DNA from: Mansonella perstans | Lineage: Eukaryota > Nematoda > Chromadorea > Rhabditida > Onchocercidae | Length of the DNA stretch: 64,000 nucleotides | Assembly: GCA_037074765.1 (NCBI GenBank) | Contig: JBAMDO010000181.1 | Coordinates: 310,001 to 374,000 of the forward strand | Direction: 5' to 3' | In this document: positions 43,897 to 64,000 of the stretch, piece after piece | Numbering within the stretch: the first letter of the stretch is position 1 | Layout: each line of letters opens with the position of its first letter | Made by a program: the position numbers and the translations under genes | The notes under the pieces: model-generated | Seen by the model: the letters and a program-made list of their open reading frames with translations, nothing else | Databases searched by the model: none | What the model was told of the DNA's origin: nothing

Positions 43897-45758
43897 CTAA
43901 TTTAAAAACCTGATGTATAGATTACCAACTAGAAGTTTGTATAAGGATGGTATTTTGCATGCAACACATAACAATCTTGTCTCTTTAAATCAATTGCTCC
44001 TCGATAATAAAATACTGCCAATAATTCTTCGTTGAATTGAACAAATCAAAACTCATATCACGCATCAAAAACTAATCATTCAAGACAATACTTCGACTGT
44101 TATTATAACATCACGTCAAAAGTAAACATTACATCTTAGAAGTGTTTAAAAATGCACATGAATGGTAATAACATATTTGTGAGTAGCATAAAGTATCCAG
44201 GAGAGTTCATCCTGAACAACCATGTAGCAAGAATTTTTATATAAAGTCTGTTCTAATAGTTGTGCTTTTTTAATTATAAATTATATTCATTTTGTTCTTA
44301 TTTTTAGATACAAAAAGCGCGAAAAATGGAATTTTCAAGTGCAGGATTTTCAAAAAAGGATTTTATTTGCTAACTTAAATGTGCCATCGTGTCATCGTAT
44401 TTTTTTTTTTGTTTCTATGCTACTTAACATAATTATCATCTTTGTTACATCGTTTTTCCACAGAAATCTATCCTCAATGTAGGATAATTTCGAATTTCCA
44501 ATATGGTAGCAGCGAAAGCCAAACGATATTGATATACAAACGGTGGCAAAACTTGGAATCATGCCATTAAAGGGGAACTTTCACCTTTACTTCACGAAAA
44601 GTATTCAATGAACAGGATGTCGTAAACACAAGAATTTATGATTTTGCTGCAATTCTACCTTTCTCTCTAACTTTTCGGTAATTTTTGTTGTTGTCATCTT
44701 CCAGAATCGTAGTGAGATGTACCTGTCGTGCTTTTCTTATTTTTGTTCCAAAATTAGTTATATTCCGAATTACAATATTAATTATCCGGCATTTTCTTAA
44801 TCAGCAAGTTGCAAATTATAAATAAATTTCCATAATGAAAGGTTCGAATTTAATTCGAATTCTCTACTCATACCGAAATTCGACCATCCGTTTAAAATTG
44901 CGCGACATAAGAGAAACATTTAATTTCAACCCTACCATTTAAGTTTCATATTACTATCAGTAACGGAATTGATACCTCTGTACAAACTGATCGTAATTAT
45001 CTATTACTACATCTTGCAATAGGCTATGCAGTCGAATATTCCAAAAAAAAAAACTCGGAAAATATCTAAAAGAATGGTTCAGTATAAAACATTAAATAAA
45101 CATCAAGCTTTTTGGAAATAACAAATCATTCTAGATCCTGAATGCTTCGGAAGAAACAGGGCGAAGAAGCTGACCAAAACAATAAAGGGAACAAACTGAC
45201 TAAAACAATGAAGCATGCTAACAGTCGAGACACATGACAAGAATTTGTTCTATATCATCTGTCGCGAGTTTTTGCTAGAGTTGACATTTTGATATCCCCT
45301 TTCTGTCTTATTTCATATATACATTGTATTTCATTTAAAAACATCTTTTTGTAGGTTTTCTACAGTATAGAACGGAAAAGACAAAAGCTAAGAGCTGTCG
45401 TATTTTTGAAATTTTAATTACGAAAAGATGACTTAAGCATTATTTTCTACAAACAGGAGACCTGTATTTTTCCTCTCTTCTGATCATTATTGAAGTGCGA
45501 ACCTATTTGTATCGCTAGCTTTGATTTAATTCACGTTTAGTTATGCGCAGTTGTGACTGATCAAGTTTGTTTCCATAATTTCTAACTCTGAAAAAGCGAT
45601 CATTTACTTGTAGTAACCATAGATATATTAAATGAGATTTCACTGTATTCCTGTGTCAACAGAAAATCTCTTCCGCATATGTAAGCTTCGAGGAGTGAAG
45701 ACTATGGGCGTGATCAATTAATTCGCCTAATGAGCATCATAGTAATTGATTGTTATTA
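43897..45758. other. Intergenic, one candidate plus exon
   Basis: AT-rich. At 44510-44611, after ATATGGTAG, the plus strand is open as QRKPNDIDIQTVAKLGIMPL followed by KGNFHLYFTKSIQ and a stop. It may be a terminal exon, but no partner was found. The rest shows nothing. Confidence 0.35.
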
Positions 45759-47196
45759 ATGAGGGTGAAACCATTGGAACTTATTTTTTTACCTTATGGC
45801 ATTTTACCAACTACAGCAGCTGCTATTACCACTGCAGCAAGCCGCAACGCTGTATTCGAAAAAAATTACTGTTCAAGAGGTAGCTTTTCTTACATATTAA
45901 TTACGTACTTCTCATTAACGAAATGATGTATTATCATCAGCGATTTTCATTCACATATCTGAAGTTATAAAATTGCCTGGAATTCACTTATTATTGTTGT
46001 TGCCTACTTCCTAGCTTTAATTAATGAAACTTTTTGCCTTTCCAATTTTACCGTTCTCTGTCATTTCATCATTCAACAGCTCTTTCAGTATGTTCACTTT
46101 TTAACAATTGTGCGAAAAACCCGTTTTCACCATAAATAAAATCTATTTAAAAAAAAAAAAAAAGCACAATGCTCATTGATTATATCTTTTTATTTGTATT
46201 AAGTGAAAATTGCTGAATTTACAATATTTGAATTCACATTAGATGATGAAAAAAGCAACAAGCTACCCCGCAGACGAACTGCATTTACTGATGAACAATT
46301 GTCACTACTCGAAAATGCATTCCAAAAGTGTGAATATCCAAAAATTGATATGAGGATAAAATTGGCTTCGGAAACACAATTACCAGAAACACGAATCCAG
46401 GTCCTTTTAAATCTAATACTTCAAATACCTTCCAAATAATTAATCACATCAAAATTATCTTTCTATTTGTATTCAATAAAAATATTTATTTTGCCCCTTT
46501 TTTATTTTTGTCACATAAAATGCTAAAAAATTTAAACAGCTCTGCACATATCTTCTCATAATTAAGTAGCCGTAAATTGATATGAAAGGTTGGTGAGATT
46601 ATTGAAAATTTATGTTCTGTTGACCTGCTGAATCATTAGTTAAGTCGAACTCGCAGCTATTGATGATGATGATGATGATGATTTAGCAGTGCATTACTGT
46701 ACTATGCAAACAAATCTAAGGTTCTATCGGTAATGCGATGGGCAGATGCAGTCAGATAGCATTCTTTTCACAACCACTCAAGTTATCTATCTAATACAAC
46801 TGTAACTTCTGTAATCACTTCACGACCTTCCAATGATCCTTCATTTTTACTTGATGCATACTTACGATTTTCAGAACATGAAAAGAGTATATTTGAGATT
46901 TTTTGACTGCGAAAAAAGATTTAAATATTAAATAATAAATCATAATTATATTGGATGACTCAGGAAGAATTTTTTGTTTTTCTTACCATACTATGCGGCT
47001 ACTGTTTGCTGTTTTTTTTTTCCAGCAAACTAAGTAACGACACCATTTTATTCACGAAATTAAAGTTTTTGAAACAATTTTTAATTTAAGGTATGGTTCA
47101 AAAATCGGCAAGCAAAATACCGAAAAAAGATGCAAAACATTGCTAATCCGGAAATTATACCCGAAACTTGCGTTCCAAAATTCAATGCCGTAATCA
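45759..47196 (+). CDS. Paired-like homeodomain protein (K50 class), 3' part missing
   Basis: A DNA-binding transcription factor. Exons 45759-45879, 46243-46400 and 47091-47196 join in phase; the last ends at A/GTGAGT, so further exons exist that I could not find. The N-terminus is short with an Ala/Thr stretch (LPTTAAAITTAASR). The homeodomain (residues about 50-109) reads RRRTAFTDEQLSLLENAFQK, then LPETRIQ, an intron, then VWFKNRQAKYRKK. The intron between homeodomain positions 46 and 47 is typical of paired-like genes. Lys at position 50 puts it with Otx, Goosecoid and Pitx types. FTDEQL..LEN.FQ resembles Goosecoid and LPETRIQ resembles Otx, so I do not assign an orthologue. Position 53, almost always Arg, is Gln here. 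An alternative acceptor for exon 2 at 46204 keeps the same phase. Confidence 0.85.
46661..46682. repeat. GAT trinucleotide microsatellite
   Basis: Seven GAT units inside the second homeobox intron. Confidence 0.85.
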
Positions 47197-47469
47197 GTGA
47201 GTGTCTCCGTAGATAGCTTTAACTAAAAGATAGACTGTGTTAGTGTTGTCGAGCTTGATTTTTTTCATTTATTATTTTGACTTCTAATACACTTCAGAAA
47301 ATAGCTGTAACACGGCTTTGGTTGCTGGTTTTTTTATTCGCATTTCTTTTAGCTTACATTTCATTCTGGACAATTTAAAAGCCTAAATTTTTATTTCTGA
47401 AAGCTTTTTTATCTTTCAAAGATTTTTTAAAGCATAATTTTATAGCATGGAAGCCGAATGCTGCACTTG

Positions 47470-47607
47470 TTTTTGTGACATCCTCTCGAGAATCCGTGAC
47501 GTGCAGCTGGCACACTTCTAATATGACAGCCAATTTTTGTGACACTCTCTCGAGAAGCCGTGACGTGCAGCGGACACACTTCTAATATGACAGCCAATTA
47601 ATTGGCT
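47470..47607. repeat. Tandem 64-bp duplication ending in a 16-bp palindrome
   Basis: Two adjacent 64-bp units (47470-47533 and 47534-47597) share TTTTTGTGACA, CTCTCGAGAA, CCGTGACGTGCAGC and CACACTTCTAATATGACAGC, with a few changes. They are richer in G+C than their surroundings and lie just 3' of the last visible homeobox exon. Each unit carries CTCGAG and TGACGTGCA (CRE-like). Directly after the second unit is the perfect palindrome AGCCAATTAATTGGCT (47592-47607). It could be a regulatory element or a small mobile-element remnant. Confidence 0.75.
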
Positions 47608-47954
47608 TTAGCAAAGGCTGATTGATATACATCCTATTACTCTGAAATTATTCAGTGAACATCCTTTCAAAACTTCCGTTTTAATTTATTTGTTAAAAAA
47701 TTTCATAATTGAAGTATATTTTATTCGTGAGTTCTAAATGAAAATCTAATTTAGAATTTTGTTTTTAGATTTTATCCTTTTGTTCAATTCACATAATAAG
47801 CTTTACGTTGACGATGATTCAAGCTCAGTTGTACGACTGATAGAAGAGTAGATTGTTTGTAATTATGTGTAATGCAATCATTTTTTGATTAGGCTACATT
47901 TTATGTGCTCACTGTTTGGTGAATTTTTTGCTAATGAATATTGATCAATAATAC

Positions 47955-48150
47955 AATAATGACATCATTTTTTTTAAAGAGAGTTAAACGCCCAGTGTTA
48001 CTGTTTGGTGATTTGTCGACGTCCATAGCCCAATTATCTTCTGGAATCCATGTGAGCAGTTCACCTGTTGAATTTTGTGACATAAACTTTATTAATATTA
48101 AATCTGACCAAAAAAAAATTCATAGAATCTCTCAATCACAACCAAAGAGT
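47955..48150 (-). pseudogene. Inverted partial copy of INTS10 exon 10
   Basis: The minus strand reads TGELLTWIPEDNWAMDVDKS with NSNTGRLT. This matches INTS10 exon 10 at 54934-55100 (GEVLAWIPEDNWAMDVDKLL, NSNADCLT) at roughly 80-85% by eye. The match extends past the acceptor into the intron (GTCACAAAATTCAACAG against GTCACAGAATTCAACAG), so it is a genomic, not RNA-derived, copy. No other INTS10 exon accompanies it. The plus strand here is also open (ORF 47941-48153), only because it is the antisense of this exon. Confidence 0.8.
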
Positions 48151-48550
48151 TAGGATAACATATCAGATCTTTCAAAATTAATTCAAAAAATTTAGTGCTT
48201 TTTAAATGTAATATAACTGACGGAAAAGCAATATATCATCATTTTCTGATTATGGGAAAATAACCTAGTAATATAGTAATATCAGATATAGTTATATCAT
48301 CTGCCCATATTCAGCAAATGGAGACAAATGCTAGACCAAGGAAACTTGTTAAAGGAAATATAGAAGAAACGTTTAAGAAATGTAAACGCATCACTTTTTT
48401 TCCTATTTTCAAATTTGAACTTAAATTTTTGTTTGTTTGGACTTAAAGAAATATAAGAGGTATACTTAAAGAGAAGTATTTGCAAGTTATTCGCTTTTGT
48501 TTTCTTACCTAAGTTCTAAACTGATAACTATTTTTATTATAGAAAATTAG

Positions 48551-48798
48551 TTTGTTGCGATAAATTTGAAGCAAGTAAAGAACGGAGATCTGCTTGCTGA
48601 AAAAGCTATTCGGTTAATCCTGTAAGTCTGACCATTAATGATCTTGAATCCACAGGGAGTAGCAGAATTTGCTTCAACCATTTCAAAGGTTTTTTTTCTT
48701 TTTTTCAATACTTTACTAATTTTCAAAGAGGAATAAGTGTACATATCGTAAGCAAAAATTTTTATGAAATTCAATCCTGTGATCATGCGGTTATATGA
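48551..48798 (+). CDS. Possible two-exon gene fragment, function unknown
   Basis: Exon 48551-48621 lies between AAAATTAG and GTAAGT and reads FVAINLKQVKNGDLLAEKAI then RLI. Exon 48729-48798 follows TTTTCAAAG in the matching phase and reads GISVHIVSKNFYEIQSCDHA then VI and TGA. Codon use is balanced and phases agree, but no upstream exon or family is recognised. Antisense ORF 48786-48547 overlaps it and is the competing reading. Confidence 0.35.
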
Positions 48799-50953
48799 AG
48801 GTGGGACGATTTACCGCACTAATCTGACAAGTTTTATCAATAAATGAAAGTGGAATGTAATACATTTTTTTTGCACGCTTGCTTACCTTTTTTTCACTGA
48901 TATATGATACATTGATATAATAAACCACCAGCATGTTCGTCCCTAATTACCATTACATGGTTTCATCTGACACATCTTTAATTGAAAAAGACGAAAGCTT
49001 TTTCTGCATTAACTAGAAACTATGTAAATAAAAAATGCACTCTTCTTTTTTAATGAAACTAGATCTAGTAGTAGAATTTGGTGAAGCTCCGTAATTAGTT
49101 CGACACTTCCTATTGCAGATAATAAGTTCACTAATCTGTAGGTGACAAAATGTAGTAAAATACAACTTTTACCGACACATTTCTTCGCATTCTTAATTTC
49201 TTTTTCTTACTTCCTTTCATGCAAAACAGCTGCCAACCATGTTTTTATGTTACATCCACGTTTGTAAAATTTCACTTTACTTGACTTTTTAACTTCAAAT
49301 AAAACTATAACAACTTATAATTCATATTTCCTTTTATTTTTTAATTACATTTTTCACATTTACTTGTCTTAAAAGGATGCGAAAATGAGTTCATGTTGAA
49401 TATGTATTTGTATGTTAATGTTTATCTGATAATTGATATCAATCGAGAACTATGTAAGAGAAAAATGTGACAATATATGTTAAGGATCATCAGATTTGCA
49501 TTCTACTCATTATAATGTCTAATTCCGCATCTGGCTTTAATTGGAGATTTTAATTCTAAAACAAACAGAAAAATAGGGTTCAAGATATTTCCGCATCCTA
49601 ACTTATAGTCGCTGGATTTACATTAGATAAAAAGTCGTGGCATAAAAATTGTCCAGCTTCATCAGTTTTTTACTTTCATTTTTCTTTCAGTTTTTTCACA
49701 TTACTCTGAATTCGCATGATTTTGAATGTTTTATTCGTAAAAGTTTAAATCTTAAAATATTTCTGTTTCTTTTGTAATGAATACAATTTGATTCTTTTAT
49801 CTGATTAAGTTTCTTCAAAGCAAACAAATTCAATTAATTAATAAGACGGGAAGTTAAGAAAACATGACAAACATGCCTACTATTATAGTAATTGCTTTAA
49901 GGATTTCACTCTCAGTTCCGCCATTCGCACTCAGAATTACTTGATTAAACTGATCGCTTTTCCAAGGGAGTATTAATTATCAACTCATTGATATTGTAGT
50001 CTTAAATTTTCCATGATTCGGAAAAAATACACAATTTCCTCTTTTGCTCATGCATCATTTCACTGATTTTTGAAAATTATTTCCTGTCGGATGCTTGCCA
50101 GTGATGGAAGCTATTAGTATGCCTTAACGGTATCTCACATTTCTACTTAAAGTAAGATAAAATTTATGGTGAGCAATGGTCATTTCTTCTTTCATTAAAC
50201 CTCTGTAAAAGCCGAACTAACATTACTTCAGTTCAAAGTTCTTTAGAGCAAATGATGTTCAATATTATTAGTCGAAGCATTTTTTTTCTGAACCACTAGC
50301 ATTTTCACCTCTTTATTCCGTTGTTTACATAAAGTTGTGGAAAATGAAAGAATAAAGCTAAAAAATATGGAAATAAATTCTGAGAAAACGATTAAATTCT
50401 GGGGAATAATGTTGCTGATGCAAAACGGGTCGAAGGTATTTTTTTTTGAAATTGTTTGATTTTTTTCGAAATCAGTACGTACCCACTTTCACTGCTTCTC
50501 GCTTTTTCCAATTTCATTTGATCTTTCAGCCTGACACTTTGTTCTACCTTCAAAAAATACCGAAAAAAAGGCAAGTTTCTGAATATTTAAAAATGCAACG
50601 ACAGCTTCCTTCAACAAATTGTAAAACTTGCAAAAAGAATTGAATATCATGAATCCCTCATCACAAAATGAAAGAATATCATTCATCTCACTAATTTCAT
50701 TGCTTTATTCGGAATATTAATCTCATTGTTTCGTTTCTGGATTATGAAAGATGCAACAGTTGCAAAATGTGATTTAAAATTTCGAAATTTCCTTTATCAA
50801 ATGACAAAATATTATTAATTTATATAACCTTCGTTTCGTTCACGACCGAAATTTGGTGTATATTTTGCCTCGTCTGAATATTTCGTTTTTATTCGGTTAG
50901 TAATAATTACGGACACTTCCTGAATTGATAGTCGGTTTCCAGCTTATTCATTA
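48799..50953. other. Intergenic, nothing recognised
   Basis: AT-rich sequence with overlapping short ORFs on both strands around 50390-50690 that cancel each other. The right end is the promoter side of the neuropeptide gene. Confidence 0.5.
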
Positions 50954-51633
50954 GTGGGAAAAAAACGAATAACGATGACAAAAGCAATATGTTTATTGAT
51001 GGTTACGTGGTGTATGATATTGCCATATTATCACACAGAATCCCAACGTATTTCACGTCGAGCAAATTATATCGATTATAATGATGGTAATTTGTTTATG
51101 GTTAGTCTTCTGTATGCATCCTTTTCTTTCTTTGAAAGAAAATTCCATGTAAAATATTTCAATCTTACCAATTTTCCACTCATAAAAAATTTGAAGATAT
51201 GCTAAAAAATCAAATTTTCACTCCAGAATGCTTTCAAATATCTATCCTTCAGTTCTAAATTTATGAATTTGAGAAGTAAATAATAATTAAGTAGCTCCAG
51301 CTTTCCCATATAATTAAAATTAATATTTTATCAATGTACCTATAGAGTGAGGAACTGAATTGTACAACGATCAGTAAAAAAAGACAAAAGATATAGCGCT
51401 TAAACACTACGTATCAAAAGTGAAATTTTTGAGAAGCCTACTGCAGATTGTCGTAATTGCAGCGAAAGTTTGGCATAATCAATCCGTTCTACAATTCAGA
51501 TAGCAGAAGGATACAGTTTTACAGTTCTCGCGAATTACCCAAACGATATTTTGATGCATTGGCAGGTCAATCATTGGGTAAACGATCAACTATGATCCTA
51601 CAGCCATTGTATGATACTGTTTCCACAATTTGA
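50954..51633 (+). CDS. nlp-3: NLP-3-like neuropeptide precursor
   Basis: A secreted precursor cut at dibasic sites to give short peptides that act on neuronal receptors. Exons 50954-51100 and 51463-51633 join in phase 0, giving about 105 residues. The first exon holds a signal peptide (KAICLLMVTWCMILPYY). The second contains NPFYNSDSRR, then ELPKR YFDALAGQSLG KRS. YFDALAGQSLG flanked by KR on both sides is one residue away from the C. elegans NLP-3 peptide YFDSLAGQSLG. The Gly before KR predicts C-terminal amidation. INPFYNSD upstream resembles the NPFLDS-type NLP-3 peptides but ends in SRR without the amidation glycine. Alternative donors at the end of exon 1 do not keep phase. Confidence 0.85.
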
Positions 51634-52564
51634 ATACCTGTTGTATCTTTGAATTAGTAATTTAAAAATTGTTGCATATCTTCATTGTTTGCTATTCAAT
51701 ACCAGCATGCTCATGATATCGTTCACAATAAAAATCGGATTATTCACAAAATCCGAACTGTTACAAACTTTTAGTAATTTAAAATATCATATTCTCGAAA
51801 ACAAAAGAATTCCAAAACAGCAATCATATGGAAAGTAAGGATAGAATAATTTAAATGTTTGAAGATAATAAAAAGTGTCATTTCAATTAAACAATTCAAA
51901 CTGGCTAAATTTAATAGTCAGTAGACATGTACATTTCGGAAGTGTAAAATTACTGCAATGATATGTCCCAAAACATGATCCTAATTAGGCTGTTTATTTG
52001 CTTTGATTCATTCAATTCTTCTCGCAGAAATGTCTTTTCTGACATCATCAATGAATTTTAAAACTACTGATGATATCAGAAATGACACTTGTCATCTCAT
52101 TATATCTGCCCATTTGAGCAGCATTTGTAATGTAACAGCAGCGATTGAGTGAAAAAAAAAATGCAGCATTGAGTTTTGAGATACACAGAAATTGCGAAGT
52201 AGCGGAATGTTTATTGGAAAAAGAGAAAGAAATTTTAATTTCTTTGCAATTAAATTTAGTAAAGAGTTAATTTGAACTCTTCAATTCTTTGTTTTCACCT
52301 CTTCTCCTACTTTTTATCTCTGTTTCTCATTTTTCCCTTCTCTCTTTTCCCTCTCCTTTTCTAATTTTTTTAGAGAAAAATGAATGGAATGTAGAAATGT
52401 AAATAAAAAAAAGAAAAAAAAAAAAAAGACGTAATTGTGATCATTTTATTTTGTCATTTCGTATTTTATTCAATTTCATATTTAAAACTGAATTTCTGAA
52501 TTACATTATTTATCAAATAGGCTACAATGTTGACGAAATAAATGCAAATTAACAGAGGAATTGA
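51634..52564. other. Intergenic, between nlp-3-like and INTS10 genes
   Basis: No gene seen. It contains A-rich tracts (about 52406-52428). Confidence 0.5.
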
Positions 52565-55500
52565 ATGATGGAATTATCAGCTAAAGAACATTTGGATCGT
52601 TGTTTAACAGAGGAGCACGATTATGCAGTGGGTAAAGCGCATTGTCGATTAGCTTCATTGTATCCTGATTTCAATTTATTGCTCTGTGATGTAAGCCTTT
52701 ATGGGTATTAAAGACATTTTCACAAGCTTCGGTTGTTCATGTGCATATTTAGATGTGGCTCATGTTCGGTAGCCATGATAAGAAGTGCCTGGAAGAATGA
52801 TTAGAAGTTTAATGCAGAATACTGGCCTACCATTGTTGTGGTGTTAAAGTATACTGCACAAAGGAATGTTCACTAATGCTATTTGGCCAACTTGAACCTG
52901 TAAGCAAAACGACATGGAATTAAGTAAAATCAATTTTATCATTTAAGTTTTCTGTAAAACTCTTCTTCTGCTTATAGATCACCGAACTGCGATTTTATAT
53001 GAAATGGAATCGTGCCATAGAAGCTGTTCCCGTATTGGAACGACTGTAAGTTTTCATCATCACTATTATCCCTATGATTATAATTATGATTTCCTTGACT
53101 GTGACTATAATCACGATTCCCTTATGATTTTCTTGACTATGTTATAATCATGATTTCCTTATATTTTCGACTGGCAAGACGTACAGAGATTTAAAAAAAT
53201 TTTTTATCTACAAGTTAGTCAGTTACTGAGGTTCATTATTTTAGTGTAAAAACACATCCATCGGATGAGGCGTGGACACTAATACATCAGCTTTTCCTAA
53301 AAGCATCGTCTTCAGAGAATTCTACTGAAAAAAGTATTTCTTCAGCAAATTTATTCTTTATTGATAATTAATATTGCAAAAAAAAAAAAAAAAAAAAAAA
53401 AAAATTCCAGTTTTGTTCACCGAAATATCAAACGATGCATTTGAATTCATCATTGGTGGCTTAACAAAGCGTTTCGACAACGACGATCTTTTGAAAACAA
53501 AATTACTTCTTTTTTGTTTACGCTATGCTGATGAAAACAAGTTCAACAAACTATTGGTTAGTTTAACATTTTTCATGTCTTTGTCCTTTCAAAGTCTATT
53601 TCTTTATTTATAATAGCTCCTTTTTTCGAATTCTGCCTCTTTTGAATGTAAAAAATTTGAGAAGTGAATGAACAATATTCCTTGAATAAATTCATTTTAG
53701 AATATCAAAGTATTCTTAGAATCTAACAACTTTGACTTTATAGAATCGCGCCGTAACATTTATAACGGAAAGAGCTAGCAATGACAAGGAACTCGAGAGT
53801 GGCATTGGCAAGTATCACGTTTATTTAGGTAATTTTTGGAGATATTCAAAGTTTCTTTTGGATTTGGATATATGACCTATGTACCAGAAAGATGTGCTAT
53901 TTTAAAATGTAAAAACTGGGACAACTGAATGGAGTATAGAATTGCTACTTGTTCATTCAGTTGTATAGTTTTATAGTACGTGCACGACAACTGTGAGCAC
54001 AATGCTTTCATATTAAAAGAAGAATTATTGAAAGTGAAGCTAGCGGTCTTGCATAACACTTTTTATGCATATTTTAACCAAATTCTTTTTCAGCAGTTTT
54101 TGTTGCCCCTGCTCTTTTGAAGCTAAATTTTGCAAGCATAACAGTGAGCAGAGCTTTGAGTATTGTCATCACGGTTCTTCATGTTGGAATTGCATGGCCA
54201 GAACATAATGATACCTGGACTAATCTTTTGCGGTCATTATTTTCATATTTTTTTCCTTACCAAGAGAAAGCAATAATTTTGTTGTCCTGAATGTATATTA
54301 TAATGATCCGTTCATGGTAATTATTTTTACTAATTAACAGTTGTTTTCATTTTCTTCAAAGCAACTCTCAGTGATTTCAGGGTAGTTTCAGAAAATTATG
54401 AAGTCGAAGCGCAGCACTTCTCACAAGAAAGCTTTAAAATAGGGGCTGCACTATTCGACAAATGTGTCATTTTGTATGATCTTGGGACATCTATTAATTT
54501 AAGTTTAAATTTGAGGTATGGTATTGATATATATAGGGATTTCCTTCCGAAAAAGAAATTTTTTGCTTGCTTATTTTACAGTCTATAGAAAATATATGCA
54601 TTTTATAGACTATATTTTCAGTGGATGTAGTATTCTGTTCGGTATTGTGGATAAAGCATGCAGCTTAAAAACTGAAGCTCGTAAGATTGTTTTTTCATTT
54701 TTCGTATGGTACGCTTATAAGCAGTGGAAGGCAAATATCAATGAAGGTCTCTTTATACTTTTTTTGTTTTTTGTGTATTTTCATTTTCAAAGCTGAGACA
54801 TATATTTGTTTTTTATTGCGACTGGGGTCTTTTTTGTATCTGTTTGGTGAATTTTGTTACTACATAGCTTGCAAAAGCTTCAATTTTTTTGGGCTAGATT
54901 CAGTATTATAATTTACGTCACAGAATTCAACAGGTGAAGTGCTTGCATGGATCCCAGAAGATAACTGGGCTATGGACGTTGACAAATTATTGAACAGTAA
55001 CGCTGATTGCTTAACTCCTTCAAAAAAGACAAAACTTAAAGAACGCAAGGAGGAAATAGCAACATTTCAAACAGAGTATTTGATGTCATCACGACGTGAG
55101 GTAGTTTTTTTTTTTCAAAATGTTTTCATCAAAAGTAAATTGGTCAGGCTTTGCTTGAACTGTTTTTATTTGGATTGGGGTGTTCTTAAAGAGGCCCTTT
55201 AAGGAAGGCAGTGCAGTCAAATAGAATTTTTGAAGTATTTATGCTCTTAGATAGAAGCATATTATAAGATGAACAAGATTTTTAATACTATGCTTTTCAG
55301 TTATGCGAGGCGTACGAACTTTGTTGTGCAGCAATTTGTGCAAATGTAACGCCGATATCTGCAGATGCTGTTGCTGAAAGTCTGTATTTTGCTTCTTTTT
55401 ACAGTGACATACGACAGCTCATTACGGAATCTCTATTGTTCAAATGCAAAATCAATGAATTAATAGCGTATGTTGATGATGTGGGTGTTCATTACAAATT

Positions 55501-57131
55501 TTCAAAGTGTCAATTCTTCTATGTATTAGTAATTTCATTATTGCTCTGTTGGAAACCATAATCGATTAGTAGTATTTCTACTTATATTTGTAACTTTATC
55601 TTTTCAGCATCTGGGAAATGCTGATTCTAGGACGAAAGAAGTACTTTATTTTCAACTTGCCTGTGCTCACTGCTTGAACCAGAGTTGGCCTGATGCATGT
55701 GAAAACGTGATTCACATATTTCATATTGTAGCAGAAAGCAATATCGGATCAAAAGTGGTTTTTTCCTGTCAAGCAGTTATTTGTACTAATTCTTTAATCA
55801 GTCGTAATCAAAAAATAGGTGTTGTCGAATATTTTGTGCATGTGAAAATAAGCGAATCGAATATTTGTATTTATATGTTCAAGTTCCATCAAGTTCTAGA
55901 ACTGATTCTTATAGGAACATTTAATATCCAGTATTTTAATGGCATTAAATAAACTACATATTAATGATAGTTTGTCTCATTTGCAGTCCATTTACGACAC
56001 ATATTTGTCAAATTCATCTAATAGAAACCACTCCAACACTCAGGTTTGTGTAATTTTTCTGTGGCGTATTCGACAAAACCTAGTACAAGTTTACATCTCA
56101 TTTGCAGCCCATTTGTTGCGTTTAATATCGGAAAAGCATTAGTTTTTGTAGATCTTTATTTAATGTTAACCAATGAATTGTTAGAAATCAGTTTTTTGAC
56201 TGAAAATATTAAATCAGGTTTTACTTGCATGTTAGTATTCATTTTTATCAAGCTTTTAATTTTAGCCGTCTTTTGTAATAGTCAAACAAGAACGATTAAG
56301 AAGAATTGTGTACGATATTGCTTATCATATTTTATTTCGGGTATTTTATTATTGTTTTCCGTTAAATTTATAGAACCCAATGTAGTTCTTTATTTATAAC
56401 TAAAAAATTTCAAAAATACCTAAACCAACATTTATGGGAGGTACATAACTCATGTTAATTCAAGGTTTATACGTCAACAGCGATGGATCATGATAATGAT
56501 CAATTACTGGGTGCTCTTCTCGTATTATCTCAAATCGATTTTTCAACAAAAGGATATCGATGTTTTAATCGCATCATGCGACATGTAGAAGCAAAGGTAA
56601 CACTTGTGTCATAAGAATAATATCAGGAAAAGCGAGATATAGTAAATAATGATCAATTTGAAGGAAGTGATGTTCTGATTACAGGGATCGCTAAGAAGCG
56701 CGGGGCTTATAAAGTACATAAGTAATATAGCAATTCTAGAAGAACTGTCAAGAATTCAGGATTACTGCACCGAATATGTTTCCATTCAAATTGCAATACC
56801 ACAAGTGCAAAGGTTGACCACTTATTTTGGTCTTGCTGTCAGTTTTTGAATAATAGAACCATATTGTCGGAGCCAATTACCATCACAAATAAGCTTAATT
56901 CACTTAAATAATTTGCAGTACTGGAAAGCAAGGATTTCTTGAATATAAATTTTCTTTTCCAGAAGGATAGGACAGTCGACGCGTCACAGTGTCAGAGGGA
57001 CGAAAGATGGTCAAAAACAATCAATAGAAGAGCAAATAAAAAAGTGTCGACAAGATCCATATGTAACAGTGTTGACGTATTTTATTGAAAACAAAGAGGC
57101 AATATTGAAAATGCTTGGGGCCAAGTTTTAG
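52565..57131 (+). CDS. INTS10: Integrator complex subunit 10
   Basis: INTS10 is a helical-repeat subunit of Integrator, the nuclear complex that binds RNA polymerase II and cleaves snRNA and other nascent transcripts. Sixteen exons join in phase: 52565-52690, 52864-52899, 52978-53045, 53245-53333, 53411-53556, 53744-53828, 54094-54232, 54381-54515, 54622-54746, 54934-55100, 55301-55480, 55608-55757, 55987-56043, 56465-56596, 56685-56812 and 56963-57131, about 643 residues (human about 710). Anchors to the human protein, compared from memory: CRLASLYPDFNLLLCDE near the start (ARSLYPADFN in human); VLYFQLACAHCLNQSW (ALIQLATCHFALGEY); SNIAILEELSRIQDY (TNIDMLEEFAYLR); and a C-terminus HSVRGTKDGQKQSIEEQI then ENKEAILKML (HTVTRGITKGVKEDF, NEKILLL). 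The whole protein is alpha-helical with no catalytic motif. The end of exon 12 is uncertain because open frame continues to about 55817. Confidence 0.85.
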
Positions 57132-57296
57132 AAATTAAAAACTTCATCATATCGGGTAAACAGCGTTGATCACTTGCATAGTACAACAGTCATGAGATTG
57201 GTAGTTTCTATTTCTTTTCATATTTTTTTCTTAGTTATGTGTTTGCCATCATAATTTTAATCGTATTTTCATATTGTCACAACCTAAAATAATTTT

Positions 57297-57541
57297 ATGA
57301 ATTCATCTCATCGCGTTTTTTTAGCGTGTTTTTTACCACATCCACAAAAGTTAGATCTCGAGCATATATATGTAGCTGCTGTGGAAAATTCTAGCGAGGG
57401 AATAGAGGTGAGTGAGGCTGAAAGCCATTCACTAATTATTTTGATCGGGATCTACCAGCTTTCATTTATTAAGTAAACGAGTCTGTAGTAATGGTTCAGG
57501 AGCTCAGGGTATTTATGCACCAAGGATTTAACACACGTTAA
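57297..57541 (+). CDS. Possible 50-residue gene downstream of INTS10
   Basis: Exon 57297-57407 (ATG, open to a GTGAGT donor) and exon 57500-57541 (after ATGGTTCAG, ending at TAA) join in phase 0. The 50-residue product contains FLPHPQKLDLEHIYVAAVEN and EELRVFMHQGFN. It begins about 165 bp after the INTS10 stop on the same strand. A pyrimidine-rich acceptor (TTTTTTTCTTAG, ending near 57232) lies between them, as expected for trans-splicing in a nematode operon. The product is not recognised. It could also be an alternative 3' end. Confidence 0.35.
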
Positions 57542-57757
57542 GCGGTGAGAGTTTTTATAGCGGAATTTAATCTGGCGATAGCATCGAGCTCTCTCGACGG
57601 ATTTCTGTTTGCACCCGATATTGTGGCGGTAAAGGGAATAATTTGAGATGAAAACATGTTAGGCAAATTTATTACATTAGAACAAGAAAACCAGAAAAAA
57701 AAAAGTGATCAAAATACAACGATGCTAGCGAAACTTCTGCAGTAAACATTATTCACT

Positions 57758-58913
57758 TCAACAAGCATCTTCTAAAACTATTGATGCACAACTAGCTTTC
57801 GGACTTGCTGGAACGGATCTCATTTTTCTGTCGGAGTTTGAATCCATATCCGTCATTGCCTTTGATTTAATGACTGGTGGGCGTTTCCCTTGCTTCTTCG
57901 CATTTCCTGGCGGACGAACTAAAACTACCCGTCAGTTACACACCAATACTCTAGATACCAGATAATTTCTTGCAATGAATGGGTAGGCGAGAATGAAAAA
58001 ACAAGATTCGGAAAATCGAAAGTGAAATGAATACGAATATCGAACGTGAAACGAATACAGCTAACCAAACTTCGAAGGACGCACAACAATGAACATTTTA
58101 TCTTTCCACCCTCCTTTTGGAGTTATAAAACACGTTTCGCCATGATCCATCCTATAAAATCCTCGGTAAATTGATTTCTTATGGGGTAATTACTCATTAA
58201 GTTCGATATGACTTCAATGGCCACCTATTTCGTAAAAAGGTAACTTGCCCAGTGCAGGAAGCAACCCAGCAAGATCTGCGATACTCATTTGATTTGCCGG
58301 ATAATTTCTCTCTGGACTATTGCAATCGTCACAAATTTTGATCTAATTTGTGCTTCTGGAGCATCTTTCGACCTGCTCCGATCACACTGTACTGCGATTG
58401 TGCATCGAGTGGGATCTCGTGAAACGACAAACAATTATTTATAGCGATGGTCACTGACCACTGGCGGCAAGAAACAGGAAGGCTTGTCATTTGCACATTG
58501 TTGATACGAATATACTTATTTACAACAAAAAACCAAACATACAACAGCACTCTATCGAAACCGGTGTCGGGATTCCGGTACTTCAGCCCTGTGGCGTCCT
58601 TGAAAACGTTTTTTAACGTCCTGACATGCAGCACACCATGCGAAGGACATATAGGAATCTCGATACCTTTGCTGCCTATGGTGTTCGATACTACAACCCA
58701 TTCCTCCGGTGCACATACCTAGAACTACTAGCGCTACTGTGACATAATTCTAACATACGGATAATTGTTCTATTTGCTACAATTTGATATCTTGTCACTA
58801 ACATTAATTAATCGATTAATGATGCGAAAGTAATGATAATAAATAATTATGCAGATACAACAACGTACTGATTTTAGTGATTCGTCCGAACTGCAAATCT
58901 GTTCCCCATCCAT
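57758..58913 (-). CDS. TDP-43 N-terminal-domain-only protein, no RRMs
   Basis: Four minus-strand exons join in phase: 58913-58869 (start Met), 58718-58543, 58151-58066 and 57918-57758 (stop TGA), giving 155 residues. Residues about 22-100 match the ubiquitin-like N-terminal oligomerisation domain of TDP-43, compared from memory: KGIEIPICPSHGVLHVRTL for IEIPSEDDGTVLLSTV; ATGLKYRNP for ACGLRYRNP; GGWKDKMFIVVRPSKF for AGWGNLVYVVNYP. In TDP-43 this fold lets the protein self-assemble in the nucleus. It is followed by a basic stretch that could be a nuclear signal (AKKQGKRPPVIKSK) and a Ser-rich tail to the stop. The two RRMs and the glycine-rich tail of TDP-43 are absent, and no RRM motif is seen in 57132-57757. 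It is tail-to-tail with INTS10. Biochemical role unknown; it could modulate full-length TDP-43 by NTD pairing. Confidence 0.75.
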
Positions 58914-59149
58914 CTTGGTAGATCTGTAGTGAAGATAGTGAGTTAATTAGCTCGCTGTTCTGATATATCAATATTCCAACGTCCAAAAAAAAATCAAGCA
59001 AAAAAAAAAAAAGGTACCACAGGGAACAACAATAAACTACTAAATATGATTGAAATATGATTTAGTATTATTTCATCAAAGGTAAAAAGATATTTACAGA
59101 AGATTCAACCAAAAGAATAACGTATCTGATGATGATAATGATGATGCTA
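58914..59149. other. Short intergenic gap
   Basis: 5' side of the TDP-43-NTD gene. AT-rich with a GATGATAATGATGATG-type stretch near 59128-59145. Nothing coding. Confidence 0.5.
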
Positions 59150-59605
59150 TTAGCTAAAATAGACTCTTAACGGAGAAACCAACAGAGAGTAGCAAAGGTG
59201 AATTGATACAATGAAGAATGGGGAATATACAAAGCAATCTCGGCGCCAAATCTCAAGATCATAGTTGAGCTTAGAGAAAAAAGTTTAGAGGAACCGATAT
59301 ATTCTTAAAGGATCCAAATAAAAGTTGTTTGTTGAATCGATCTTTGTATCGCACAACAATTTAGTAGCATTTATGATTGGGCTTATATCAAGAAAGTTCT
59401 TGATATATCAACAATTAATTAAGAAGTTGAACAAAAAAATTGCTTAGTATTTACACTTTCCGTAATTCGCTTTAATTTCTGAAACATAATGCTATCAATA
59501 CATTCGATTTGTGCATTTTCAATCATATTCATTTCATTACAGTTCAAATCTTTGAAATATTCTTCATCAATGCAACATTTAACCGTATAACCAATGTATT
59601 TCAAA
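59150..59605 (-). CDS. Unrecognised minus-strand fragment, two exons
   Basis: Exon 59605-59455 (after TTTGATAG, ending at GTAAAT) contains YTVKCCIDEEYFKDLNCNEM and NAQIECIDSIMFQKLKRITE. Exon 59269-59150 (after TTCTCTAAG) joins in phase 0 and contains LNYDLEIWRRDCFVYSPFFI, ending with TAA. Several cysteines in the first exon suggest an extracellular protein. Upstream exons would lie on the far side of the CA microsatellite; a weak candidate (SLHDQFREPRGRS) is near 60595-60555. Family unknown. Confidence 0.35.
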
Positions 59606-59733
59606 CTATCAAATGTTAACAAACATTTCAGATATTTTTCAATATCAAATTAGCATTTGAAATATTACATTGGCGGTCAGTAAAGAGTTTTCATTGTGTT
59701 ACCGTCAAAGTAATTTAATAATTTTTGCTCGAA

Positions 59734-59752
59734 TGTGTGTGTGTGTGTGTGG
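59734..59752. repeat. GT-dinucleotide microsatellite
   Basis: Uninterrupted TGTGTG run. Confidence 0.9.
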
Positions 59753-60140
59753 TAACATATCGTGTATGATTGAAGATGAGGGGCGGGACAGCGTGAGCTG
59801 TTGTCCATTGATCGAACGTTGATGTGAAGTGAGCTATGTGTTTCGCTATTGAATGATAATTGATCTGTGATGTGTTCCGGGTTTACCGAATCTTACGGGT
59901 CCTATTTTTATCTTATATGTACACGTGTATGGCATCCCACTGGTATATTCGAGCAAACCAAAGAGGTAGTGTGGTAGGTATATACACACAATTGCATTAG
60001 CATACACTATGTGTGCTTGGATTTTTGGTATATCAATGAACCGCAAAAAAAAAGGAGGAAGAGTAAGGGATTCGTGAAAAAATGACCACAATTGTTTACA
60101 TGTTTTAGCCATGAGAAGATGCCACTCAACGTAGATCTTT

Positions 60141-60164
60141 ACACACACACGCACCCGCCTACAC

Positions 60165-60202
<38 letters not shown>

Positions 60203-60250
60203 GCACACACACACACACACACACATACATACACACACACACACATACAC

Positions 60251-60285
<35 letters not shown>

Positions 60286-60496
60286 CATACATACACACAC
60301 ACACGCACATACACACACACGCACACACACACACACATACATACATACACACATACACATACACACGCACACACACACACACACATACACACACACACAC
60401 ATACACACACACACACACATACACACACACACATACACACACACACATACACACACACATACACACACACACATACACACACACACGCACACACGC
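60141..60496. repeat. Long CA/TACA microsatellite
   Basis: About 356 bp of ACAC with regular ACAT/TACA and ACGC variants. It produces long Thr-His and Cys-Val ORFs in several frames on both strands, which are not genes. Confidence 0.97.
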
Positions 60497-60663
60497 ATAC
60501 ATATATGTAATAGCTTCTCTTTTGGCTAAAAGTATAATCGAAATGCTCGGCAAAAAAACACTTCTGCCACGGGGTTCTCTGAATTGGTCATGAAGCGATG
60601 CTTGCTTCAATCTATGAGATTCATAAGGAAGGAGTATTTTTCGGTTTGTGGCATTTATGTGGG

Positions 60664-60687
60664 AGTGTGTGTGTGTGTGTGTGTGTT
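60664..60687. repeat. GT-dinucleotide microsatellite
   Basis: Uninterrupted GTGTGT run. Confidence 0.9.
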
Positions 60688-61862
60688 CTTGTATGCATGC
60701 ATTTGTGTTTATAAATGAAGTAGATGAAATTGTAAATGGACATGACCTCCAAAAGAGATGACACCTTCTCTTCCGATTAACTTAGTTATTGTCATAACGA
60801 GCATTGACGTACGCCAGTATCTTTACTTTCCATTATTAGATTTGAATAAGGCAAAAGAACAGTTCATAAAATAGTTCTATTGCATTCCCCTAAATTTTCA
60901 TCTAAAACTCTCATTTGTTTGCTGACACAATTTGAGTGAATTTTTGTATGATTTTTTTTGAGGTAATTTTTGAGTAAATTTGAAGAAAAGTTTTTAAGAA
61001 AGAATGAGATAAGTTAGTCTTTGCAGATTAAGGCATTTTCAAAATAAATCTTGTTTTCTAGCTATTGAACATCGCTTTATACGTTTTCTTTCAATAAATT
61101 AGTACGTCGTCGGCTAAAGATATATCAACTATCTATCTTCAGTCAACGACGCTATATGTAGTAACATTCGGTCAGCCTCATGATAAACCTGTACACTAAC
61201 ATCTGTCAGACTCTTCATTGCAATCGTTGACATTTCGATCGTTTCAACGGTTGATCATTGCCAACTGGTACATGGCAGTATTTTTTTAAACAGTTCGAAG
61301 ACAAAACTTAATTTCATTTGTGTCTAGTTTTATTTAGTGCTATTATATACCGTTATTTCACCATCTTTCATCGTATCATTTTCGCAAATGATAAATTTTT
61401 ACGTAATCAGAAGAGAAGGAAAGTATGGCTGGTAAGTTCGACGTGACGGTAAACGTTTCCTCCGTTGAAGCATAAGTTTACTAGTTTTTTTTTTTGCATT
61501 TTTTACGATTGCAGCACACTCGTTTTTCTCTTTCGCTGTGGTACGTAACGTATTTGACACCCTCACTTCTCTCGACTGAATCAAATTGATAGCAGCATTT
61601 TATGTTGTGCTTTTCATCATTCAATCATTGGCTTTCTTCCTGTATGTACTTTTGCATTACTAGAGACGTTATTTCATCCATTCATTCACTTGCACAAAGT
61701 AATGTAGCATTGAGCTTCGACCGGGATTAAAAAAATTAAAGAAATCTGGCTTTGAGACCTTTTGTTGCGCCACATACAACTGATTTAATATGAAATTATC
61801 CCATCACTGAACAGTATATATTACATTTCTCGGTTCGCAAATAATTTTCATTACAGATAAAA

Positions 61863-63946
<2,084 letters not shown>

Positions 63947-64000
63947 GTTTCATTTATCTTTTCGAATCTTTTTATCTTCGAATTTGGTGTACACTTTGCG

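What the first reader, a model, noticed from the sequence alone, without database searches (positions are those of the whole stretch)
57758..58913. A complete gene for a TDP-43 N-terminal domain without RRMs
Four exons join in phase into a 155-residue protein whose first 100 residues follow the TDP-43 self-assembly domain (GLKYRNP, GGWKDKMFIVV), then a basic patch, a Ser-rich tail and a stop. RNA-binding domains and the Gly-rich tail are missing. Such a protein could cap or tune TDP-43 oligomers, or form its own assemblies, and would be a natural counterpart of truncated TDP-43. I know of no described gene with this architecture.
Basis: partly seen in the sequence, partly recalled or inferred. 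Interest (0 to 1): 0.85.

Follow-up and report, generated by a model that had tools for sequence, protein, structure and literature searches.

The report
RRM-less TDP-43 paralogue in filarial worms
Filarial nematodes carry a small conserved gene that keeps only the chain-forming domain of the disease-linked protein TDP-43, with one of its two docking faces stripped of its usual acidity, so it may act as a natural stopper for TDP-43 chains.

Summary
Four exons on the minus strand (58913-57758) give a 155-residue protein with a TDP-43 N-terminal domain (Pfam E 3.9e-22) and no RRM. No RRM exon was found in the stretches searched around it, and the gene is single-copy. It is not a relic: a protein search returned 10 relatives from 9 filarial and related species, 4 of exactly 155 residues. 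Databases already label 7 of the 10 as TDP-43 N-terminal-domain proteins; I found no paper. AlphaFold2 on the Loa loa orthologue gives the TDP-43 NTD fold (TM 0.92 by target length to 5mdi). The same genome holds three longer TDP-43-like genes with RRMs and a second RRM-less candidate; shared intron phases point to descent from TDP-43. New here: the chain face that is net acidic in 118 of 118 surveyed full-length TDP-43s has lost its acidity in 8 of 8 complete NTD-only proteins (+2 by my main residue set, 0 or +1 by two narrower ones), while core contacts on both faces (E17, N45, R52) are kept. My leading reading is a nuclear, one-sided cap on TDP-43 chains; a self-selective polymer is a close rival. 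The gene is secure; the mechanism is inferred.

The parts
58869..58913 (-). Exon 1, residues 1-15 (MDGEQICSSDESLKS); most conserved part of the protein
   Evidence: Translation; 13 of 15 positions invariant in 8 proteins
58719..58868 (-). Intron 1, phase 0
   Evidence: GT-AG, 150 nt, 71% AT against 55% AT in the CDS; the L009 model also has phase 0 here
58543..58718 (-). Exon 2, residues 16-74 (74 split): most of the NTD (GLKYRNP)
   Evidence: Pfam TDP-43_N 50.2 bits on this exon alone
58668..58670 (-). Codon of K32 (human E14 position): charge-reversed position on the tail face
   Evidence: K/R in 9 of 9 NTD-only; E/D in 118 of 118 full-length TDP-43
58554..58556 (-). Codon of D70 (human M51 position): new acid beside the conserved R71 (human R52) on the head face
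   Evidence: D in 9 of 9 NTD-only; acidic in 0 of 118 full-length
58152..58542 (-). Intron 2, phase 2
   Evidence: GT-AG, 391 nt; phase 2 in all five hand-made family models of this genome
58066..58151 (-). Exon 3, residues 74-103 (both ends split): end of the NTD (GGWKDKMFIVV)
   Evidence: Pfam positions 52-73 on this exon alone, 17.7 bits, below the cut-off by itself; inside the 78.4-bit match of the joined protein
57919..58065 (-). Intron 3, phase 1; weak donor GTTAGC, junction fits orthologue predictions (KFVRPPGN)
   Evidence: phase 1 in all five hand-made family models
57758..57918 (-). Exon 4, residues 103-155 and stop TGA: basic segment (residues 104-122, 57916-57860) and variable Ser-rich tail; counterpart of the TDP-43 linker exon, ending before RRM1
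   Evidence: Translation; 12 of 24 invariant in residues 100-123 and 5 of 32 in residues 124-155
58924..58925 (-). AG ten bases before the ATG (CTTCACTACAG/ATCTACCAAG/ATG), possible splice-leader acceptor
   Evidence: Read in the sequence only; inference
57668..57673 (-). AATAAA, starting 85 nt after the stop: likely polyadenylation signal

Best explanation
This is a functional gene made by duplication of a nematode TDP-43 gene that kept exons 1-3 and a shortened linker exon and lost both RRMs and the C-terminal region. The protein folds as a TDP-43 NTD, probably enters the nucleus by its linker-derived basic segment, and docks through its head face (human N45, S48 and R52 positions kept) onto the acidic tail face of a TDP-43 chain end. 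Its own tail face has lost its acidity (E14 to K/R, S29 to R/K, T32 to K/R, P36 to K, E9 to N/S) and would poorly accept the basic head of the next TDP-43. It would therefore stop chain growth and tune TDP-43 oligomer length and RNA-processing activity. Shown by computation: gene, conservation, fold of an orthologue, intron phases, loss of tail-face acidity. Inferred: nuclear entry, binding to TDP-43, capping.
For: Conserved gene: 10 relatives, 4 of them 155 aa; one clade at 100/100 with a long stem and short tips, so change was followed by constraint. Fold: pLDDT block means 93-96 over residues 21-100 of the Loa orthologue, TM 0.92 by target length to human NTD 5mdi and 6t4b. Intron phases 0,2,1 as in L009. 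Core contacts kept in 9 of 9: E17, P19, N45, R52, with T/S at 48. Tail-face net charge +2 in 8 of 8 complete NTD-only against -4 to -1 in 118 of 118 full-length; with two narrower residue sets 0 against -3 to -2, and +1 against -1 to 0, no overlap in any set. Rest of the domain -1 on average in NTD-only, 0 in nematode full-length, so no general drift to basic within nematodes. Human precedent: substitutions on one face block growth, and two complementary one-face variants pair as dimers (PMC5656600 passages; PMC5830921 passages and section 10).
Against: E17 is kept in all 9; a dead tail face would have no reason to keep it. D70 beside R71 adds a negative charge to the head face: in the narrowest residue set the head falls from +1 in all 48 nematode full-length proteins to 0, so the head is not strictly unchanged and docking on acidic TDP-43 may weaken. 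K32 and D70 form a possible complementary pair, which suggests self-assembly. The main residue set was drawn up after I had seen which columns differ. The human contact map is carried over about 28% identity, and nematode TDP-43 itself lacks R55 (0 of 48) and mostly lacks E21 and Q34. The nine sequences are one clade, so the changes may be a single event on a long stem. No expression, binding or localisation data.
Confidence: 0.38

Rival explanations
1. Insulated homopolymer: the charge changes are complementary (K32 on the tail with D70 on the head, perhaps D56 with R98), so the protein forms its own head-to-tail chains that no longer mix with TDP-43, for a separate scaffold.
For: Core contacts on both faces kept in 9 of 9. 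Position 14 basic and position 51 acidic, on opposite faces, in 9 of 9 against 0 of 118 each. In human NTD the 16-19 and 50-53 strands pair across the interface (PMC5830921 section 10). In the narrowest residue set both faces are neutral (0 and 0), so nothing forbids self-pairing.
Against: In the two wider residue sets like charges face each other (+2 with +1, +1 with +1). K14-D51 proximity is inferred from strand pairing; no coordinates were measured.
Confidence: 0.27
2. New partner surface: the recharged tail face and basic linker bind nucleic acid or another protein, and head-to-tail assembly is no longer the point.
For: Four basic positions gained on one face (14, 29, 32, 36), a basic segment with 12 of 24 invariant residues (100-123), and a nearly invariant N-terminal 15-mer that does not align well with the own-genome paralogues. 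Possible DNA or RNA binding by the NTD is cited in PMC9676014 (passages).
Against: E17, N45 and R52 invariant in 9 of 9, which would be unneeded if assembly were lost.
Confidence: 0.16
3. Diluter: it co-assembles with TDP-43 through both faces and simply spaces out RNA-binding units, lowering RRM density in the chain.
For: Fold and core contacts kept on both faces.
Against: A tail face without acidity (0 to +2) opposite a TDP-43 head face at +1 (L009) makes one of the two junctions unfavourable or neutral.
Confidence: 0.14
4. Decayed or misannotated TDP-43: a pseudogene, or the first exons of a full-length gene whose RRM exons were missed.
For: Long stem in the NTD tree (1.3 changes per column).
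Against: Four of 10 relatives have the same 155-aa length across genera; open frame intact; tblastn with RRM parts of three paralogues gave no match better than E 0.49 in window 44001-64000 (13.7 kb on the gene's downstream side) and none up to E 1 in C181:372000-381900 on its upstream side, while the L009 control rang at 3.5e-35; single-copy locus.
Confidence: 0.03

Closest known systems
Nematode TDP-43 (C. elegans TDP-1; own-genome L009)
   Same: NTD, core interface residues, intron phases 0,2,1 (L009), basic linker after the NTD
   Different: Has RRMs and a C-terminal region; acidic tail face; C. elegans is reported to have only this one homologue (PMC12820612, passages)
Human TDP-43 NTD (PDB 5mdi, 6t4b, 6b1g)
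   Same: Predicted fold of the Loa orthologue matches at TM 0.92 by target length
   Different: 25-29% identity in the eight structural alignments at E <= 0.001; human E14, E21, Q34 and R55 not kept, E17 and R52 kept
One-face human NTD variants (E17R, Y4R, S48E; head or tail double mutants)
   Same: Alter one of the two faces; complementary pairs stop at dimers
   Different: Laboratory variants, not natural genes; here E17 is kept and charges around it are changed, and a D is added on the head face
sTDP-43 splice isoform
   Same: A shortened natural TDP-43 product that keeps the NTD
   Different: An isoform that lacks the C-terminal domain, replaced by 18 residues (PMC9048411, passages); here a separate gene without RRMs
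DIX and PB1 domains
   Same: Ubiquitin-like folds known for head-to-tail assembly (recalled); the TDP-43 NTD is said to resemble DIX in PMC12820612 (passages)
   Different: Weak structural matches only, E 0.12 or worse

Membership tests
TDP-43 NTD family (Pfam PF18694) | Profile score above the curated cut-off | tested here: met
   78.4 bits against 27.1
TDP-43 NTD family (Pfam PF18694) | TDP-43 NTD fold | tested here: met
   AF2 of the Loa orthologue P0003, 80% identical; TM 0.92 by target length to 5mdi_A and 6t4b_G (0.47 by query length, because the query has loose ends). The window's own spliced protein was not folded
TDP-43 proper | Two RRMs after the NTD | tested here: not met
   No RRM in the protein; none found around the gene in the stretches searched
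TDP-43 proper | C-terminal Gly-rich or prion-like region | tested here: not met
   The frame stops 53 residues into exon 4, with no Gly-rich stretch
TDP-43 proper | Acidic tail face and basic head face with E17 and R52 | tested here: inconclusive
   E17 and R52 kept in 9 of 9, but the tail face is net 0 to +2 by residue set
TDP-43 proper | Head-to-tail self-assembly | not testable with these tools
   Needs purified protein
TDP-43 proper | Nuclear localisation signal after the NTD | tested here: inconclusive
   Basic KKQxKR...KxK segment lies where the linker of L009 lies; function not tested
Spiruromorpha NTD-only orthologue group | One clade, K/R at position 14 and D at position 51 | tested here: met
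   Clade 100/100; residues 9 of 9

The most novel reading that the evidence does not exclude
A separate gene in filarial nematodes encodes a dedicated chain terminator of TDP-43: an NTD with its docking head largely intact and its accepting tail stripped of acidity or made basic, a natural counterpart of the laboratory one-face mutants used to prove head-to-tail assembly.
Probability: 0.37. Interest if true: 0.85.

Novelty: new variant of a known kind. Interest (0 to 1): 0.6.

Why it matters
In human TDP-43, NTD chain formation supports splicing, autoregulation and phase separation (PMC5830921 and PMC9048411, passages), and the title of PMC5491494 states that it antagonises pathologic aggregation. 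Phosphorylation at S48 has been proposed as a regulator; I know of no separate gene that regulates chain length (recall, and the ten paper searches listed under NOVELTY). A conserved gene that is almost only an NTD, with one face recharged, makes the question 'does nature cap TDP-43 chains?' directly testable with two small proteins, and would show which surface changes separate binding from chain growth.

Tried and rejected
A weaker exon 3 donor (GTTTGG) was tried and breaks the frame. First models of L011 and L012 had wrong junctions and gave stops; corrected models are, and the RRM search was repeated with them. These models were made by hand to keep the frame, some on weak donors (L010 exon 2 GTCCCT, L012 exon 1 GTCCCA), so the shared phases are not fully independent evidence. 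The pseudogene and missed-RRM readings were rejected (see rivals). Species was not established: L009 is 91% identical to a Wuchereria bancrofti protein and 86% to a Litomosoides one, so an onchocercid is likely; no genus is claimed. dN/dS was not possible because no orthologue DNA was at hand. The NTD tree (79 columns; 51 rows, of which 18 were picked from the 120 listed full-length hits and 33 from the alignment) cannot say which full-length paralogue gave rise to the gene; the tool also warned of long branches meeting and of an outgroup that is not one side of a branch. The alignment has an indel near human position 21, so C39 there is not interpreted. It also said that the paralogues have two RRMs; Pfam shows one each over its cut-off. 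Paper searches: (112 papers, 20 listed; 7; LOAG_02861, none; 2; 1; 7, 6 listed; 132, 3 listed; 2,021, 15 listed; 'TAR DNA-binding protein' occurs in none of those 15; 21, 12 listed), 59 (62, 10 listed). None of the listed titles or abstract starts describes an RRM-less NTD gene; the library lacks most subscription journals. Papers opened by passages only: PMC5925147, PMC12820612, PMC5656600, PMC5491494, PMC9676014, PMC9048411; PMC5830921 by passages and section 10.

Full report
WHAT IS THERE. The gene lies on the minus strand. Exons 58913-58869, 58718-58543, 58151-58066 and 57918-57758 join in phase into 155 codons and a TGA; all three introns are GT-AG, in phases 0, 2 and 1. An AG ten bases before the ATG could be a splice-leader acceptor, and an AATAAA starts 85 nt after the stop (the first is inference). 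Pfam TDP-43_N matches residues 22-97 (78.4 bits, cut-off 27.1, E 3.9e-22) and no RRM is listed up to E 1. Against solved structures by sequence all 8 rows up to E 1 are human TDP-43, best 5mdi at E 0.0026. In its own genome 8 pieces match up to E 1: four at this locus and four weaker NTD pieces at three paralogues (6 candidates scored), so it is single-copy as far as that search sees.

IT IS A CONSERVED GENE. A search of 5.8 billion proteins scored 14 candidates; 10 match at E <= 0.001. They come from 9 named species: Cercopithifilaria johnstoni, Loa loa, Wuchereria bancrofti (two entries), Setaria digitata, Onchocerca flexuosa, Dirofilaria immitis, Thelazia callipaeda, Brugia pahangi and Acanthocheilonema viteae. 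Four of 10 are exactly 155 aa; the other six are 142-212 aa, with differing predicted ends or a partial model. Loa and Thelazia are both in the infraorder Spiruromorpha; for the others I rely on recall. A profile search found 25 of 1045 candidates at E <= 0.001: the same 10 plus 15 short pieces of 56-138 aa. Of these 15, five are named (W. bancrofti, A. viteae, O. volvulus, two of Gongylonema) and look like L010 or L011 rather than this gene; ten have no named source, of which P0013 (67 aa) looks like one more member's exon 2. Only proteins of 0.55 to 1.75 times the query's length are candidates, so this is not proof of absence elsewhere. Ascaris and Toxocara appear in the full-length search and not; Ascaris belongs to another infraorder, Ascaridomorpha.

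Conservation is uneven (window protein plus 7 orthologues): residues 1-15, 13 of 15 invariant; NTD 21-99, 45 of 79; residues 100-123, 12 of 24; tail 124-155, 5 of 32.

THE FAMILY IN THIS GENOME. Pfam TDP-43_N passes its cut-off at five places. I modelled all five by hand. L009 (488 aa), L011 (406 aa) and L012 (376 aa) each have the NTD and one RRM_1 over the Pfam cut-off. A second RRM region is seen only by similarity: L009 is 91% identical to a W. bancrofti TDP-43-type protein over its whole length, L011 and L012 match the later L009 exons by tblastn, and L011 has a sub-threshold RRM_7 match. L010 shows three exons with the NTD and no RRM in the 14.6 kb of its contig searched. Intron phases after the first three exons are 0,2,1 in the finding and in L009, and 1,2,1 in L010-L012 (hand-made models, some weak donors). 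Exon 4 of the finding starts where the linker exon of TDP-43 starts and stops before RRM1. With RRM parts of L009, L011 and L012 as queries, tblastn over window 44001-64000 gave one chance-level hit (E 0.49) and over C181:372000-381900 none up to E 1, while the L009 positive control gave 3.5e-35. Among the 82 listed RRM_1 matches of the genome (150 of 172 candidates scored) the two on this contig are over 180 kb away. C. elegans is reported to have a single homologue, TDP-1 (PMC12820612, passages).

FOLD. AlphaFold2 on the Loa orthologue P0003 (80% identical to the window protein; a 40-row alignment) gives block means of pLDDT 93-96 over residues 21-100 and 55-64 outside. Foldseek against the PDB: eight matches at E <= 0.001, all human TDP-43 NTD; the best have TM 0.92 by target length (0.47 by query length) and rmsd 1.1-1.2. 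The window's own spliced protein was not folded.

ORIGIN. In an NTD tree of 51 rows and 79 columns the 9 NTD-only rows are one clade (100/100), inside a set of 30 nematode rows (98/92), on a stem of 1.3 changes per column with short tips. The tool warns that so few columns resolve little and that long branches meet; the parent paralogue is not identified.

THE TWO DOCKING FACES. Human NTDs form chains head to tail. The papers place E14, E17, E21 and Q34 on the tail and R52 and R55 on the head (PMC5656600 passages). E17 pairs with R52, S48, N45 and the backbone of 51 and 53, and the tail is acidic, the head basic (PMC5491494 passages). Further contacts are listed in PMC5830921 (passages and section 10), which uses the words head and tail the other way round; I follow PMC5491494. 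I compared 9 NTD-only rows (P0009 and P0010 were left out because their predicted N-termini differ; P0011 is partial; P0013 was not used) with full-length TDP-43: the 120 listed of 347 hits, of which 118 were kept (P0041 and P0091, which have no TDP-43_N domain, dropped).

Kept in 9 of 9: E17, P19, N45 and R52, with T or S at 48. Changed: position 14 is K (7) or R (2), against E (106) or D (12) in full-length; 29 is R or K, against 1 basic of 118; 32 is K or R, 36 K, 37 D, 9 N or S; 51 is D, against no acidic residue in 118; 77 is R. In my main residue set, drawn from the papers but after I had seen the table, the tail-face net charge is -4 to -1 in 118 of 118 full-length proteins and +2 in 8 of 8 complete NTD-only proteins (the partial ninth: +3 with two residues missing); the head face is +1 in all nine and +1 to +3 in the full-length ones. 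With only the residues of PMC5491494 the tail is 0 against -3 to -2 and the head 0 against +1 to +2; with only those of PMC5830921 section 10 the tail is +1 against -1 to 0 and the head +1 against +1 to +3. So the loss of tail acidity holds in all three sets without overlap, its sign depends on the set, and the head is unchanged or one unit lower than in nematode TDP-43. The rest of the domain is -1 on average in NTD-only, 0 in nematode full-length and -4.8 in other full-length proteins, so within nematodes this is not a general drift to basic. The own-genome paralogues L009, L010, L011 and L012 have tail faces of -3, -3, -2 and -3 and head faces of +1, +2, 0 and +1 in the main set. Nematode TDP-43 itself lacks R55 (0 of 48), so the human map is only a guide.

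READING. A domain that keeps its head and spoils its tail should bind the free tail of a TDP-43 chain and not let the chain grow further. Human one-face variants behave this way: a head mutant and a tail mutant together stop at dimers. Against this, E17 is kept, and D70 next to R71 with K32 on the other face is a plausible complementary pair for self-assembly; that rival is close. The nine proteins are one clade, so the changes may be one event. Capping is the leading reading at 0.38; the gene, its domain and its conservation are close to certain.

NOVELTY. The proteins are in public databases; 7 of 10 carry automatic NTD-domain names. Ten paper searches listed nothing on an RRM-less NTD gene; a survey of TDP-43 evolution reports the domain count conserved in over 88% of sequences (PMC9676014, passages). 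I class it as a new variant of a known kind.

Noticed in passing
L010 (G000:C201:17603-17746, minus strand, and flanks): A second RRM-less NTD candidate with a Pro-rich start (PPPIPPPPPPARPPP), Pfam TDP-43_N 72.5 bits; related pieces in A. viteae (P0014), O. volvulus (P0017) and Gongylonema (P0019). Its last exon was not found and its group's tree stem is longer still (2.04).
   Followed up: partly
P0012 (Wuchereria bancrofti, partial, 1.9-kb contig): An L010-type protein in which the second half of the NTD occurs twice with almost identical letters, as in a tandem NTD; could be an assembly artefact.
   Followed up: no
L011 and L012 (G000:C528, C94): Two further TDP-43-like genes with NTD and RRM besides L009, grouped together in the NTD tree (100/100) and far diverged (stem 1.19); C. 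elegans is reported to have one.
   Followed up: partly
window 58542-58152 (intron 2): The A. viteae entry P0011 reads into sequence that resembles this intron (IEAGLEMLYKHKLD versus IGAGRKMLQKHKLD); here it runs into stops, so it is probably a mispredicted exon, but the intron seems conserved.
   Followed up: no
window 62109-64000 (+): Neighbouring gene with an organic solute transporter Ostalpha-type domain (PF03619, E 1.6e-20 and 2.1e-10 on two open frames).
   Followed up: partly
window 60141-60494: A (CA)n-type repeat of about 350 bases.
   Followed up: no
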